Source: Tsukamurella conjunctivitidis (GTDB lineage Bacteria > Actinomycetota > Actinomycetes > Mycobacteriales > Mycobacteriaceae). Taken from it: a stretch of DNA of 64,000 nucleotides. Both the position numbers and the translations under genes were made by a program. The stretch is from contig NZ_VIGX01000006.1 of the NCBI RefSeq assembly GCF_007858475.1, positions 1-64,000 of the forward strand, read 5' to 3'. The notes beneath the pieces were generated by a model, which was not told where the DNA came from, made no database searches, and worked only from the letters and a program-made list of their open reading frames with translations. Every line of letters begins with the position of its first letter. Positions within the stretch are counted from its first letter, which is position 1. This document shows, one piece after another, positions 1 through 50,421 of this stretch.

Positions 1-1224
1 GGGGGGGGGGGGGCGGGCGGTGGGGGGGGGGCCGGGCGGGGGGGGCGGCGGTCCGGTGGGGGGGGTGGGCAGCGCCCGGCGGGGACGGGGCGGGGGGGGG
101 GGAAGGGACGGGCCGGTCGGAATCGGGCGGGGCGGGCCCGACGGGGCGGCGGGTGCGCTGGGCCCGCTGGGCGGCGGCGCGCAGTCGAGCACGGTGGTGG
201 GTGCCGGCGTGCCGCCGGGGCCGCGGGCCGCACCGGACGCCGCCGAGGGCCCGGTGGGCGGCTTAGCCGAGGTCGTCGCCGGTCCGGGCCGCGCCGAGGA
301 CACGGCCGCCGAGGGCCTCCCCGGCCCGGACGGTGCCGCCGAGCCGGACGGCCCGGCCGGGCGGGAGGGCGCACCGTCGGGCACACCGCAGCCGACGACG
401 ACCACCTGGCCGGGCGGCAGGGGCTTGGGCAGCTGCGTGGGCGGCGCGATGGGCGCGGTCATGTCGGGGATGCCACCGACGGGGATCGCCCGGTCGCGGT
501 AGGCCTTCGACCAGGCCACGACGTTGTCGACGTAGGAGTTCGACTGGTTGTAGGCGAACACCGCGACCCGCTGCGCGGCTTCGCTCTGCAGCCCGGACGC
601 GCTGGAGCAGAGGTACCGCGCGGCGCCGTACGCGGCGTCGCGGACGTTGTTGACGTCGGCCCTGCCGTCGCCGGAGTTGTCGCCGCCGAACAGTGACCAC
701 GTGGTGGTGAGGAACTGCATGGGGCCGAGGGCGCGGGCGAAGCCGTCGCCGTCGCGGATCACGGCGTTCCCGGCCAGTGAGCCGTCGAGGACCGGACCCT
801 GGATCGGGGTGAGCGTGTTGCCCGCGGCGTCGACGTTGCCGCCGTCCGCGTGCCCCGACTCGATCCGGCCGATGGCCGCCACGAGGTTCCATTCGATCCC
901 GCAGCCGGGCGCCTCGAGGGCCATCCGGTCGGCGGCTCCGCGGTAGGCGGCGTACGCGGCGCCGGGGATGCCGAGCGGCCCGGGCGCGACCTTCACGGCC
1001 TCCGGCCGCGGTGGGATCGGCACGTGGCGCGGTGCCGGGGCGGCCGGCGCGTCCGACGGTGCCGGCGGGCGCAGGTCGGCCAGGCCGATCGCGGCCTGCG
1101 CGACCAGCTCGGGACCGGGGGAACGGTGCGCGACGGGCACGTCGGGTGCGGCGGTGTCGGCGCCCGCGACGCCGAGCAGTAGCGCAGCGGCACCCGCTGC
1201 GGCGGTGGCCCCGAGGATCCGCAC
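1..1224 (-). CDS. Secreted lytic transglycosylase-like protein, 3' end beyond the window
   Basis: The frame reads leftward from a GTG at 1224 preceded by GGGAGGGG and stays open to position 1, so about 408 codons are seen and the C-terminus is missing. The N-terminus is a hydrophobic Ala/Leu signal peptide (about residues 1-25). Around residues 100-190 is an SLT-type fold: IESGHADGG with the likely catalytic Glu, then LGPMQFLTTTW and later AAYGAARYLC and AVFAYNQS, as in actinobacterial lytic transglycosylases that cleave peptidoglycan glycan strands outside the cell. The rest is a Pro/Ala/Ser-rich tail becoming almost pure proline near the left edge, where the plus strand is runs of G. The fold call is firm; the exact subfamily is not. 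Confidence 0.8.
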   Translation of the reverse strand, partial: MRILGATAAAGAAALLLGVAGADTAAPDVPVAHRSPGPELVAQAAIGLADLRPPAPSDAPAAPAPRHVPIPPRPEAVKVAPGPLGIPGAAYAAYRGAADRMALEAPGCGIEWNLVAAIGRIESGHADGGNVDAAGNTLTPIQGPVLDGSLAGNAVIRDGDGFARALGPMQFLTTTWSLFGGDNSGDGRADVNNVRDAAYGAARYLCSSASGLQSEAAQRVAVFAYNQSNSYVDNVVAWSKAYRDRAIPVGGIPDMTAPIAPPTQLPKPLPPGQVVVVGCGVPDGAPSRPAGPSGSAAPSGPGRPSAAVSSARPGPATTSAKPPTGPSAASGAARGPGGTPAPTTVLDCAPPPSGPSAPAAPSGPPRPIPTGPSLPPPPPRPRRALPTPPTGPPPPPPGPPPTARPPPP

Positions 1225-1241
1225 GGTCGCCCCTCCCGGTT

Positions 1242-1255
1242 ACTGACGAGTCAGT
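1242..1255. promoter_or_regulatory. Perfect palindrome upstream of the transglycosylase gene
   Basis: ACTGAC-GA-GTCAGT is a perfect inverted repeat with six-base arms, 17 bases before the transglycosylase GTG. Its place suits a repressor or activator site, or a small hairpin in the leader. The 217 bases between the two leftward genes (1225-1441) show nothing else recognisable. No regulator can be named. Confidence 0.35.
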
Positions 1256-1441
1256 TCTCGGAGCGGACGTTACTGCGGGGGAGTACCGGTGCGGGTGGGA
1301 CTTCAGTGAAAATCAAAGATGTCATTCAGGTTCGGGGCGGGCGCGCTCGGGCTCCCGACGCCGGGTTCTGGGACGCCACGGGTGTTCCTGTGCACGTCCG
1401 CAGCCGCAGAACGCGTCATCGTGAGGCGATGCCCTGCTGGG

Positions 1442-48321: not shown

Positions 48322-49281
48322 GTGTCGGCACTCGCACAGGTGAATCGGACCAGTGACGTCTGGCCCGGGGAGTTCCTCACCCTCCGCGGCCGACGCGTCT
48401 TCGCGCGTCACGTCGACGAGGCGGCGGCGATCACGGCGCCGCCCGATCCGCGACCCACGGCGGTGATGATCCACGGGCTCGGCGGCTCGTCGATCAACTG
48501 GACCGACCTCGGGCAGGTGCTCGCGCCGGTCGCGGCCTCGTACGCGCTCGACCTGCCGGGTTTCGGGCTCTCGGATCCGCCTGCCGACGGCGACTACTCC
48601 ATCGAGGAGTTCGCCCAGACCGTGATCGCCTATCTCGAGACGATCGTGGCGGTGCGCGGCGGGGGAGTGCACCTGCTCGGCAACTCCCTCGGCGGCGCGA
48701 TCGCGGTCCGGGTCGCGATGCTGCGGCCCGACCTGTTGCGCTCGCTCACCCTGATCTCCCCGGCGTTCCCGGACCTGCGGCCCCGGGTGCGACGGCTCCA
48801 GTTCCTCCCGCTGTCGCTGGTGCGGGTCCCCGGCGTCGGCCCCGCGGGCTTCCGGCTCATCGCGAGCGCCTACCCGGAGCGGCAGGTGGATCAGACCTTC
48901 CGCGAGATCCTCGTCGACCCGGCGGTGATGGGGCCCGTGCGGCGGCAGCAGGCCGTCGACCAGGCCGCGGCGCGCGCGTCCATGCGATGGGCGCCCGACG
49001 CGCTCGCCGCGAGTTTCAACGCGCTGGTGCGCAGCTGGATCGTCGACTTCGGCGCCACGCACTGGGCGGCGGCCCGATCGGTGTCGGTGCCGACCGCGGT
49101 GCTGTGGGGCGCACGCGACCTGTTGGTAAGCGTGGGCGTCGCCCCGAAGGTGGTGCGCCACATCCGCGGCAGCACCCTCACGGTCTTCGAGGACGTGGGC
49201 CACGTCGCGCAGATGGAGCGGCCCGCGGAGACCGCCCGGATCGTCTCGGACCTCATCGCCGGCACCGACCGGCCGCGCTGA
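48322..49281 (+). CDS. Alpha/beta-fold hydrolase
   Basis: A 319-residue hydrolase. VMIHGLGGSSINWTDL is the oxyanion-hole HG motif, HLLGNSLGGAIAVRVAM the nucleophile elbow G-N-S-L-G-G with Ser near residue 123, WGARDLLVSVGVAP carries the Asp and FEDVGHVAQMERP the His. The lid domain between strands 6 and 7 is basic. Esterase or haloalkane-type activity cannot be told apart from sequence. The start GTG 48322 lies about 100 bases from the divergent TetR gene. Confidence 0.87.
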   Translation: MSALAQVNRTSDVWPGEFLTLRGRRVFARHVDEAAAITAPPDPRPTAVMIHGLGGSSINWTDLGQVLAPVAASYALDLPGFGLSDPPADGDYSIEEFAQTVIAYLETIVAVRGGGVHLLGNSLGGAIAVRVAMLRPDLLRSLTLISPAFPDLRPRVRRLQFLPLSLVRVPGVGPAGFRLIASAYPERQVDQTFREILVDPAVMGPVRRQQAVDQAAARASMRWAPDALAASFNALVRSWIVDFGATHWAAARSVSVPTAVLWGARDLLVSVGVAPKVVRHIRGSTLTVFEDVGHVAQMERPAETARIVSDLIAGTDRPR

Positions 49282-49341
49282 CCGGACCGTGGCGCGTGTC
49301 GGTTCCACTCCGAGGGCCCTGATCGTGGAATCGTTGACGAC

Positions 49342-50355
49342 GTGAGTAGTCCTTCGAACCCGAGGCGTCCCCGGCCGGACGGGCGTGCGCCGCTTCGGGC
49401 TGAGTGGGACCCCATCAACTCCCCGTCCGCGACCTCGGGCGATCACCGCAACCGGCCGCCGCGCGAGCGGGTCTACGCCAAGCAGGGGCGGCTCGGCCGC
49501 CTGCTGCGCACCTACGGGTGGCGCGCCTACGCCGTGCCCGTGCTCGCGGTGCTCACCGTGGTGGCCCTGGTGTTGACCTTCGGCGGCGACACCCTGGGGA
49601 CCAAGGAGACCACCGACACCTCTCCCGAGGGCCAGCTCTCCCGCAACCCGACGCCCGGCAAGACGATCGTCGGCGCGCCGAGTAAGACGGTGCCCGGACC
49701 GGTGCCCCCGGCGGGCATGCTCCCCGAGGGCGGGCCGTTCACGGAGAAGGGCCAGGGCATCTGGCACGTCGTGCCCGGCAGCACGCCGCGCATCGGAAAG
49801 CAGGACGAGGGCAAGCAGCAGCTCTTCACATACATGATCGCGGTCGAGGACGGCGTCGACATGGGGGCACTCGGCGGCGATCAGCCCTTCGCCACCATGA
49901 TCGACCGCACCCTGGCCGATCCGCGCAGCTGGATCCACGACCCCGCCGTCGCCTTCCAGCGCATCGACAAGGGCACGCCCACCTTCACCATCTCGCTGAC
50001 CTCGCCGATCACCACCCGGTCGGCCTGCGGCTACACCATCCAGCTCGAGTCGTCCTGCTACAACGGCGAACTCGGTCGGGTGGTCCTCAACCTGGCCCGC
50101 TGGGTGCGCGGCGCCACGGCGTTCGAGGGCGATCTCACCGGCTACCGGCAGTACGCCATCAACCACGAGGTCGGCCACGCCATCGGCTACCCGCAGCACG
50201 TGCCGTGCCCCGCGCAGGGCGCGCTCGCGCCGATCATGATGCAGCAGTCCTTCGGCGTGAAGAACCGCGACATCTTCGACCTCGACAAGTCCGAGGGCTT
50301 CGGCAACGACCTGGCCTGCCGGCCCAACGCCTGGGTCGCCCCGGTCCTCAAGTGA
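49342..50355 (+). CDS. DUF3152 protein with metalloprotease-like motif (Rv3207c-like)
   Basis: A 337-residue protein with a polar 55-residue N-terminus, one membrane anchor (AYAVPVLAVLTVVALVLTFGG, about 62-82) and an extracellular domain. Near residue 275 it has NHEVGHAIGYPQH, an HEXXHXXGXXXH arrangement like that of metzincin-type zinc proteases. Four Cys probably form disulfides. Rv3207c has the same build, and proteolytic activity is an inference. GTG 49342 is the assumed start. moeZ follows 66 bases later. Confidence 0.85.
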   Translation: MSSPSNPRRPRPDGRAPLRAEWDPINSPSATSGDHRNRPPRERVYAKQGRLGRLLRTYGWRAYAVPVLAVLTVVALVLTFGGDTLGTKETTDTSPEGQLSRNPTPGKTIVGAPSKTVPGPVPPAGMLPEGGPFTEKGQGIWHVVPGSTPRIGKQDEGKQQLFTYMIAVEDGVDMGALGGDQPFATMIDRTLADPRSWIHDPAVAFQRIDKGTPTFTISLTSPITTRSACGYTIQLESSCYNGELGRVVLNLARWVRGATAFEGDLTGYRQYAINHEVGHAIGYPQHVPCPAQGALAPIMMQQSFGVKNRDIFDLDKSEGFGNDLACRPNAWVAPVLK

Positions 50356-50421
50356 CGGTCCGTCCGGCCCGACGGTGACGGGCCCGGGAATGGCGGGCAG
50401 CGCACCGTCGTTCCACTGAAG

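What the first reader, a model, noticed from the sequence alone, without database searches (positions are those of the whole stretch)
371..50410. A 9-mer, CGACGGTGC, is strongly over-represented on both strands
By eye I count about 35 copies, counting both strands, up to 50410 (for example 1054, 6553, 10603, 15736, 16895, 19630, 24140, 26085, 31813, 38235, 42096, 46181). At roughly 70% GC, chance predicts around two in the whole window. Many copies are in-frame Asp-Gly-Ala with GGT, although GGC dominates for Gly, so selection seems to act on DNA rather than protein. One inverted pair forms the terminator at 17377-17413, and two copies overlap as the palindrome GCACCGTCGACGGTGC at 43236-43251. 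Uptake sequences, Chi-like sites or chromosome-architecture motifs behave this way.
Basis: partly seen in the sequence, partly recalled or inferred. Interest (0 to 1): 0.78.

Follow-up and report, generated by a model that had tools for sequence, protein, structure and literature searches.

The report
Genus-wide DNA watermark in Tsukamurella
A nine-letter DNA word is repeated thousands of times in Tsukamurella genomes, is kept in place by evolution whatever protein it encodes, and is scarce in most of the foreign DNA examined, so it may be a self-label that biases which DNA these bacteria take up.

Summary
The window is Tsukamurella (Actinomycetota). CGACGGTGC occurs 38 times in it (both strands) and 2,709 times in its genome. 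The 14 core Tsukamurella genomes examined carry about 425-817 per Mb; none of 294 other Mycobacteriales exceeds about 167. It has the largest excess of any 9-mer over codon shuffles (531 against 94) and is the commonest intergenic 9-mer. It occurs on both strands in several frames, without replication polarity. Rare codons inside it are kept across species four times as often as elsewhere: evolution maintains the DNA word itself. Accessory DNA is near background (18 in 131 kb). Best explanation: an uptake-sequence-like self-watermark spread by biased natural transformation. Genes for ComEA, ComEC, DprA and a Tad pilus are present, and mobile islands split tadA at one site in 6 of 15 genomes. 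Uptake is untested. Phage TPA2's enrichment and dense motifs in five tadA-split genomes count against. A 2025 paper names only Neisseriaceae and Pasteurellaceae as using such labels.

The parts
371..379 (-). copy of the 9-mer, outside predicted genes
1054..1062 (+). copy, outside predicted genes
1734..1742 (-). copy, same strand as gene, frame 2
2925..2933 (+). copy, same strand as gene, frame 2 (Asp-Gly-Ala)
6553..6561 (+). copy, same strand, frame 2
6912..6920 (-). copy, antisense to gene, frame 1 (Thr-Val)
7726..7734 (-). copy, antisense, frame 0 (Ala-Pro-Ser)
10603..10611 (+). copy in secA, same strand, frame 2
11898..11906 (+). copy, antisense, frame 1
14624..14632 (+). copy, same strand, frame 2
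15736..15744 (+). copy, same strand, frame 2
16895..16903 (+). copy, same strand, frame 2 (fatty acid desaturase)
17376..17414 (+). intergenic hairpin made of an inverted pair of the 9-mer, 18-bp stem in the centroid fold, 3-nt loop, no T-run
   Evidence: no copy in the corresponding T. tyrosinosolvens stretch
17385..17393 (+). copy, left arm of the hairpin
17397..17405 (-). copy, right arm of the hairpin
19631..19639 (+). copy, same strand, frame 2
21190..21198 (-). copy, antisense, frame 1
21344..21352 (+). copy, same strand, frame 2
23089..23097 (-). copy, same strand as gene, frame 1
24140..24148 (+). copy, antisense, frame 2
26016..26024 (+). copy, antisense, frame 1
26085..26093 (+). copy, antisense, frame 1
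26289..26297 (+). copy, antisense, frame 1
27846..27854 (-). copy, outside predicted genes
31813..31821 (+). copy, same strand, frame 2
32097..32105 (-). copy, antisense, frame 1
34576..34584 (+). copy, antisense, frame 0
36329..36337 (+). copy, same strand, frame 2
37722..37730 (+). copy, same strand, frame 2
38235..38243 (+). copy, same strand, frame 2
39308..39316 (-). copy, same strand as gene, frame 1
40466..40474 (-). copy, antisense, frame 1
42096..42104 (+). copy, same strand, frame 2
42843..42851 (+). copy, antisense, frame 1
43236..43251 (.). two overlapping copies (43236 and 43243) forming a palindrome, inside a gene
46181..46189 (-). copy, antisense, frame 0
46399..46407 (-). copy, antisense, frame 1
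50402..50410 (-). copy, outside predicted genes (last in the window)
51613..64000 (.). stretch with no copy; apart from 55689-56950 (a 76% match to a gene elsewhere in the reference) its DNA does not align to the syntenic T. tyrosinosolvens region; an AMP-binding enzyme gene follows moeZ in both, so the probable lineage-specific part begins at about 53.2 kb

Best explanation
CGACGGTGC (best context [C/T]CGACGGTGC[C/G]) is a genus-specific DNA watermark of Tsukamurella that works like a DNA uptake sequence. A surface receptor of the competence machinery prefers DNA carrying the word, so transformation by kin keeps spreading and repairing it across the resident genome, while newly arrived plasmids and islands lack it. 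SHOWN: the word has the largest excess of any 9-mer, is maintained at DNA level on both strands, is genus-specific and unpolarised, and is near background density in the plasmid backbone, two islands and the non-syntenic stretch examined; genes for ComEA, ComEC, DprA, a prepilin peptidase and a Tad/Flp pilus are present in the own genome. INFERRED: that Tsukamurella is naturally transformable, that uptake is sequence-biased, that the Tad pilus carries the DNA, and that mobile elements inserted in tadA gain by blocking transformation.
For: Genome-wide 2,709 copies against 75 for the reversed word. About 425-817/Mb in 14 of 14 core Tsukamurella genomes against at most about 167/Mb in 294 others of the order (sizes rounded). 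Codon-aware excess 531 against 94, first of all 9-mers. With a codon shuffle that also keeps one neighbouring base on each side: 7.5x G001, 3.8x own+G003, 2.4x G007, 1.9x G020, 1.07x Nocardia farcinica, 0.83x Williamsia. Intergenic 50 against 10.1. One-off variants are at most 3-fold enriched, end positions most tolerant. No leading/lagging bias, 108/110; spacing close to Poisson (CV 1.05) and flat along genes. Orthologous copies are kept about 1.3-1.9 times as often as composition-matched words at each divergence level. Rare GGT 0.75 inside against 0.17 outside, GCA 0.68 against 0.16, and 20-100 bp flanks not unusually conserved. Accessory DNA 18 in 130.9 kb. tadA split at the same nucleotide by islands in 6 of 15 genomes. 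Toolkit. Tad genes are required for M. luteus transformation (PMC4322843, passages); mobile elements insert in comK, comYC, comM, comFA (PMC4774983, passages).
Against: No uptake, binding or transformation data exist here, and no receptor was found. ComEC occurs in 60 of 61 genomes examined, so the toolkit does not explain genus specificity. Phage TPA2 carries 17 copies in 61 kb (codon-shuffle ratios 3.6-4.2; 2.3 with the stricter shuffle), while TIN2 and five other actinophages have 1-4 copies each; a phage should gain nothing from an uptake word. Five of the six genomes with split tadA keep dense motifs (548-618/Mb; the sixth, G007, has 265), and retention in split genomes is like that in the others (54/103 against 145/247). 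Motif density is lower between genes than in genes (0.38 against 0.59/kb), although relative excess is similar. Inverted intergenic pairs are few (4 against about 0.8 expected), whereas they are numerous in Neisseriaceae (PMC3630211, passages). In two small chromosome samples (40 kb each) the word was not first: G009 ratio 3.7, rank 124; G012 ratio 4.4, rank 5.
Confidence: 0.5

Rival explanations
1. A binding or modification site used on all resident DNA (nucleoid protein, or a HIP1-like word tied to a methyltransferase), maintained by selection at each site.
For: Word-level maintenance in several reading frames; phage TPA2 moderately enriched, as expected if any DNA living in the cell benefits; persistence in tadA-split genomes.
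Against: Poisson-like spacing gives no sign of architecture; the word is a non-palindromic 9-mer unlike HIP1; simultaneous per-site selection on thousands of sites is demanding unless drive helps (inference). Methylation was not testable.
Confidence: 0.25
2. A Chi-like recombination or exonuclease-control site.
For: GC-rich, over-represented, non-palindromic; could help phage TPA2.
Against: No leading-strand bias: 108 against 110 in 20 stretches of G003 with dnaA at 1.496 Mb. Confined to one genus, whereas Chi-type words usually change slowly (recalled).
Confidence: 0.13
3. A mutational or mismatch-repair bias that creates and protects the word.
For: Would act on all DNA in the cell; T/C at position 7 is the commonest single difference between orthologues (177 of 771).
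Against: Single differences occur at all nine positions and in 25 of the 27 possible kinds; all nine codons compared are kept more often inside the word than outside; the single-change source word CGACGGCGC is not depleted (225 against 219).
Confidence: 0.07
4. KOPS/AIMS-like polar motif guiding segregation.
For: Abundance and genus-wide spread.
Against: No polarity in the 20 stretches sampled; near-equal strand counts in the contigs.
Confidence: 0.03
5. Codon or amino-acid artefact.
For: 71% GC genome; Asp-Gly-Ala and Thr-Val stretches hold many copies.
Against: Synonymous shuffles give 94 against 531; intergenic excess; GGT and GCA codons are poorly kept outside the word and well kept inside it.
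Confidence: 0.02

Closest known systems
Neisseriaceae DUS and Pasteurellaceae USS
   Same: About 9-10 bp word, hundreds per Mb, both strands, coding and non-coding, clade-specific, poor in most accessory DNA, occasional intergenic inverted pairs; graded over-representation of near matches (compare PMC1939737 abstract).
   Different: High-GC Gram-positive actinobacterium; Tad/Flp pilus genes; few inverted pairs; no known receptor; uptake bias untested; one phage is enriched. PMC12616744 (passages) says the two families are the only ones known to discriminate in this way.
Micrococcus luteus Tad-dependent transformation
   Same: Actinobacterium with comEA, comEC, dprA and tad genes (PMC4322843, passages).
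   Different: 'uptake sequence' has no occurrence in that paper; M. luteus was not analysed here.
HIP1 (GCGATCGC) of cyanobacteria
   Same: A short word at high frequency throughout the genome (PMC4390886, passages).
   Different: HIP1 is palindromic and associated with methyltransferases; here non-palindromic and unlinked to any known enzyme.
Chi sites
   Same: Short, GC-rich, over-represented, non-palindromic.
   Different: No replication-strand bias found; genus-restricted.
Mobile elements inserting in competence genes (comK, comYC, comM, comFA)
   Same: Repeated insertion at one site within a DNA-uptake-related gene in several species (PMC4774983, passages).
   Different: Target here is tadA; that Tad serves competence in Tsukamurella is inferred.

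Membership tests
DNA uptake sequence (DUS/USS) | Short word strongly over-represented genome-wide on both strands | tested here: met
DNA uptake sequence (DUS/USS) | Maintained at DNA level independent of reading frame | tested here: met
DNA uptake sequence (DUS/USS) | Concentrated in core genome, poor in mobile DNA | tested here: met
   18 copies in 130.9 kb of chosen accessory DNA (138/Mb); in the window 35 copies in 51.2 kb aligned to T. tyrosinosolvens against 3 in 12.8 kb unaligned. Small sample; a plasmid segment (34 in 29.8 kb) and phage TPA2 are exceptions
DNA uptake sequence (DUS/USS) | Frequent inverted pairs as intergenic terminators | tested here: inconclusive
   4 intergenic inverted pairs against about 0.8 expected in 1.67 Mb; far from frequent
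DNA uptake sequence (DUS/USS) | Host encodes a DNA-uptake machine | tested here: inconclusive
   in 16 genus genomes: comEC 16 (in G006 as two pieces), dprA family 16, prepilin peptidase family 16, tadA 15 but split in 6; genes do not prove competence
DNA uptake sequence (DUS/USS) | DNA with the word is taken up preferentially | not testable with these tools
   needs an uptake experiment
DNA uptake sequence (DUS/USS) | Specific receptor (ComP-like) | not tested
   no candidate sought by structure; the TadE/TadF minor pilins are only positional candidates
Chi site | Enriched on the leading strand | tested here: not met
   108 leading, 110 lagging
Chi site | Recognised by the cell's RecBCD-type enzyme | not testable with these tools
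   biochemistry
KOPS/AIMS | Polar orientation from origin to terminus | tested here: not met
HIP1-like word | Palindrome overlapping a methyltransferase site | tested here: not met
   the word is not a palindrome; methylation itself was not testable

The most novel reading that the evidence does not exclude
A third, independently evolved uptake-sequence system, the first in a Gram-positive lineage: Tsukamurella transform themselves through a Tad pilus that prefers CGACGGTGC-marked kin DNA, and mobile islands repeatedly knock out tadA at one codon to stop being cleared by transformation.
Probability: 0.38. Interest if true: 0.93.

Novelty: new variant of a known kind. Interest (0 to 1): 0.82.

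Why it matters
If the word is an uptake signal, self-recognition in transformation evolved a third time, in an actinobacterial relative of Mycobacterium, probably with a different pilus. It would give a handle on natural competence in Mycobacteriales and a new system in which to find a sequence-specific DNA receptor. Even if the mechanism is another one, thousands of copies of a 9-bp word kept against codon preference in every core member examined of one genus is a large, testable feature that the paper searches made here did not turn up.

Tried and rejected
Codon/protein artefact, KOPS and a simple C-to-T mutational origin were tested and set aside. Dialect words were looked for in eight samples of other genera (20-200 kb each) and in the sister lineage G007 (413 kb): CGACGGTGC itself tops G007, and no word of comparable excess was seen in the others at this sample size. 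Reduced divergence near motifs (a recombination-patch signature) was not seen. Gene typicality did not change the excess (ratios 5.3-7.2 in five classes). The G009 plasmid first looked as rich as the chromosome; mapping showed 10 copies in the first 70 kb and 34 in the last 29.8 kb; the cut at 70 kb was chosen after seeing the map. Tad loss as the cause of low motif density failed: five of six split genomes stay dense. Two SecA trees were wrong because strands were mixed; one search replaces them. In one search the halves of G004 and five intact copies gave no match for the same reason; G004 was redone and the intact copies (8 of 8 uninterrupted). The 1.67 Mb pooled counts one 20-kb stretch of G001 twice.

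Papers: of the searches only the first 8-20 listed titles and abstract starts were seen (on mobile elements and Micrococcus, likewise); none of those listed describes an uptake word in Tsukamurella or another actinobacterium. PMC5217627, PMC4390886, PMC4322843, PMC4774983, PMC6370729, PMC3630211 and PMC12616744 were seen as passages; PMC1939737 as outline and abstract.
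Full report
WHAT IT IS IN. A protein of the window finds its close relatives in nine named Tsukamurella contigs, and the first 20 kb align at 91% to T. tyrosinosolvens. The genome held is 5.07 Mb in 343 contigs. By matching contig lengths, G001 is T. pseudospumae, G002 sp. M9C, G005 T. ocularis, G008 sp. 1534, G010 T. sputi, G011 T. spumae, G012 sp. TY48, G014 sp. PLM1 and G015 T. asaccharolytica.

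THE WORD. The window has 38 exact copies (23 + 15), first of all 9-mers. The genome has 1408 + 1301 copies, against 32 + 43 of the reversed word. The reversed word has fewer CpG steps, so I did not rely on it. With my own simple gene finder (951 genes in 1.035 Mb of own genome plus G003), shuffling synonymous codons leaves 94.2 copies (sd 8.7, maximum 113 of 20 shuffles) where 531 are seen. This is the largest excess (by z) of any 9-mer; a stricter shuffle that also keeps two bases of each neighbouring codon leaves 235 and the word is still first. Between genes there are 50 copies against 10.1 from a third-order Markov model, again the top 9-mer. Near matches show a core GACGGTG with soft ends: position 1 A 3.0x or T 2.7x, position 9 A 2.5x or T 2.2x, other single changes 0.35-2.0x; the best flanks are C or T before and C or G after.

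FRAMES, STRANDS, SPACING. Of 531 genic copies, 193 are antisense frame 1, 176 sense frame 2, 78 antisense frame 0, 71 sense frame 1 and 13 other; position along genes is flat; spacing is near Poisson (CV 1.05). In 20 evenly placed 20-kb stretches of complete chromosome G003, with dnaA at 1.496 Mb and the terminus assumed opposite, 108 copies point with the leading and 110 with the lagging strand.

WHO HAS IT. Of the 61 genomes, the own genome and 15 genus mates have 827-4002 copies and the 45 others 51-713. Dividing by the rounded genome sizes, 14 Tsukamurella have 425-817 per Mb, and the sister lineage G007 and G006 has 265 and 165. One search looked at 298 genomes of the order: 4 Tsukamurella, and 294 others at no more than about 167 per Mb. 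A SecA tree joins the 14 dense genomes at 100/99 support with G006 and G007 outside. With codon shuffles that keep one neighbouring base on each side the ratio is 7.5 (G001), 3.8 (own + G003), 2.4 (G007), 1.9 (G020), 1.07 (Nocardia farcinica, 200 kb) and 0.83 (Williamsia, 43 kb); in that call the word ranks first only in the three Tsukamurella sets. In small samples it is not always first within the genus: G014 (20 kb) rank 1, G012 (40 kb) rank 5, G009 chromosome (40 kb) rank 124, with ratios 6.7, 4.4 and 3.7.

MAINTENANCE. At two syntenic loci (11 and 14 species), orthologous copies were kept more often than 894 composition-matched words in every divergence class, e.g. 497/1102 against 19198/80660 at 81-84% identity and 438/672 against 17230/45613 at 87-90% (ordered pairs, so cells are not independent). 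Where the amino acid is unchanged, GGT was kept 73/97 inside the word and 178/1052 outside; GCA 25/37 against 66/407; CCG 39/41 against 2814/3825; TCG 34/36 against 1615/2303; GTG 52/56 against 3480/4822; GTC 76/88 against 3904/5717; ACC 62/73 against 3483/4505; ACG 35/52 against 1189/2133; GAC 96/96 against 6116/6894. These cells come from at most 65 sites of the two reference loci (38 and 27) seen in many species. Codons at 20-100 bp are no more conserved than farther ones. Single differences between orthologues fall on all nine positions. So the unit that evolution keeps is the short DNA word.

ACCESSORY DNA. The first 70 kb of the 99.8-kb plasmid of G009 has 10 copies; its last 29.8 kb has 34 and is mostly very large genes at about 75% GC, which I take by size and first residues, not by a family search, for an NRPS-like cluster. 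Two islands in tadA have 3 in 15.1 kb and 5 in 35.1 kb; window 53,300-64,000, which does not align to the syntenic T. tyrosinosolvens region apart from one aldehyde dehydrogenase-like match elsewhere, has none. Together these four give 18 in 130.9 kb, or 138 per Mb, within the range of other genera; in their predicted genes 10 are seen against 3.4 from plain codon shuffles, a ratio like that of other genera in the same test (1.4-3.4). Taking all DNA of the window without a T. tyrosinosolvens match, 3 copies lie in 12.8 kb, against 35 in 51.2 kb of matched DNA. Phages: TPA2 17 in 61.4 kb, TIN2 4 in 77.0 kb, five Mycobacterium or Gordonia phages 1-4 each. TPA2 is an exception to the pattern: 2.3-fold even in the stricter shuffle, though ranked only 95th.

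MACHINERY. ComEC is in 60 of 61 relatives, and in the genus the DprA and prepilin peptidase families are in 16 of 16. ComEA lies beside comEC in the own genome (L109:940-1878); it was not sought elsewhere. One Tad locus (Ssd, TadA, TadB, TadC, a Flp-like small protein, TadE, TadF) lies at L145:11744-16406. In 6 of the 15 genomes with tadA (G003, G004, G007, G008, G010, G013), homology stops at nucleotide 1002 of the own tadA; in five of them it resumes at 1001-1003 after about 15-43 kb, and in G007 the rest and tadB were not found. Eight other copies checked run through uninterrupted. Left ends begin TTATCTGTA in 6 of 6; near the right ends, 5 of 5 hold TTAC(T/C/G)GATAA. The two islands read (G003, G013) carry genes for two tyrosine recombinase-like proteins and a small third protein at the right end (family searches: both of G003, one of G013; the others by likeness of sequence), resembling Tn554-type transposition modules (that label is recalled). 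The hosts are scattered on the SecA tree, so several insertions are likely. This mirrors mobile elements that break competence genes elsewhere (PMC4774983), and Tad genes are needed for transformation in Micrococcus luteus (PMC4322843). But five split genomes keep dense motifs (548-618 per Mb; G007 has 265) and split genomes show similar retention (54/103 against 145/247 in intact or unknown ones), so either the splits are recent and reversible, or Tad is not the driver.

JUDGEMENT. That there is a genus-wide, DNA-level maintained word is close to certain. Its best reading is an uptake-sequence-like watermark: clade-specific, unpolarised, core-genome-biased, short, graded in tolerance. Against it stand the lack of any uptake data, phage TPA2, few inverted pairs and the ubiquity of the com genes. 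I put the uptake reading at one half.

Noticed in passing
G003, G004, G007, G008, G010, G013 (L237-L243, L244-L246): Mobile islands of about 15-43 kb (size known in five) sit at one identical site in the pilus ATPase gene tadA in 6 of 15 Tsukamurella genomes; the two read carry paired tyrosine recombinase-like genes.
   Followed up: partly
window 53220-64000: Catabolic-looking cluster (aminotransferase, alcohol and aldehyde dehydrogenases, permease, PucR-type regulator, two PhyH proteins) not syntenic with T. tyrosinosolvens and free of the 9-mer.
   Followed up: partly
L168-L172 (G009:C2), about 71-97 kb: Cluster of very large genes at about 75% GC (NRPS-like by size and first residues only) on a plasmid; it holds most of the plasmid's 44 copies of the 9-mer, while the backbone has few.
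   Followed up: partly
L110 and L207 (phage TPA2): The Tsukamurella phage TPA2 has 17 copies of the word, against 1-4 in six other actinophages; unexplained.
   Followed up: partly
window 16104-20243: Three consecutive, mutually similar desaturase genes.
   Followed up: no
G007:C23:26100-26705: An extra DprA-like open frame about 1.6 kb beyond the point where tadA homology stops; second copies also in G003 and G014.
   Followed up: no
L152, L249 (NZ_LR134451.1): A record labelled 'plasmid 9' of T. tyrosinosolvens carries mtrAB, secA and other core genes and is probably chromosomal sequence mislabelled.
   Followed up: no
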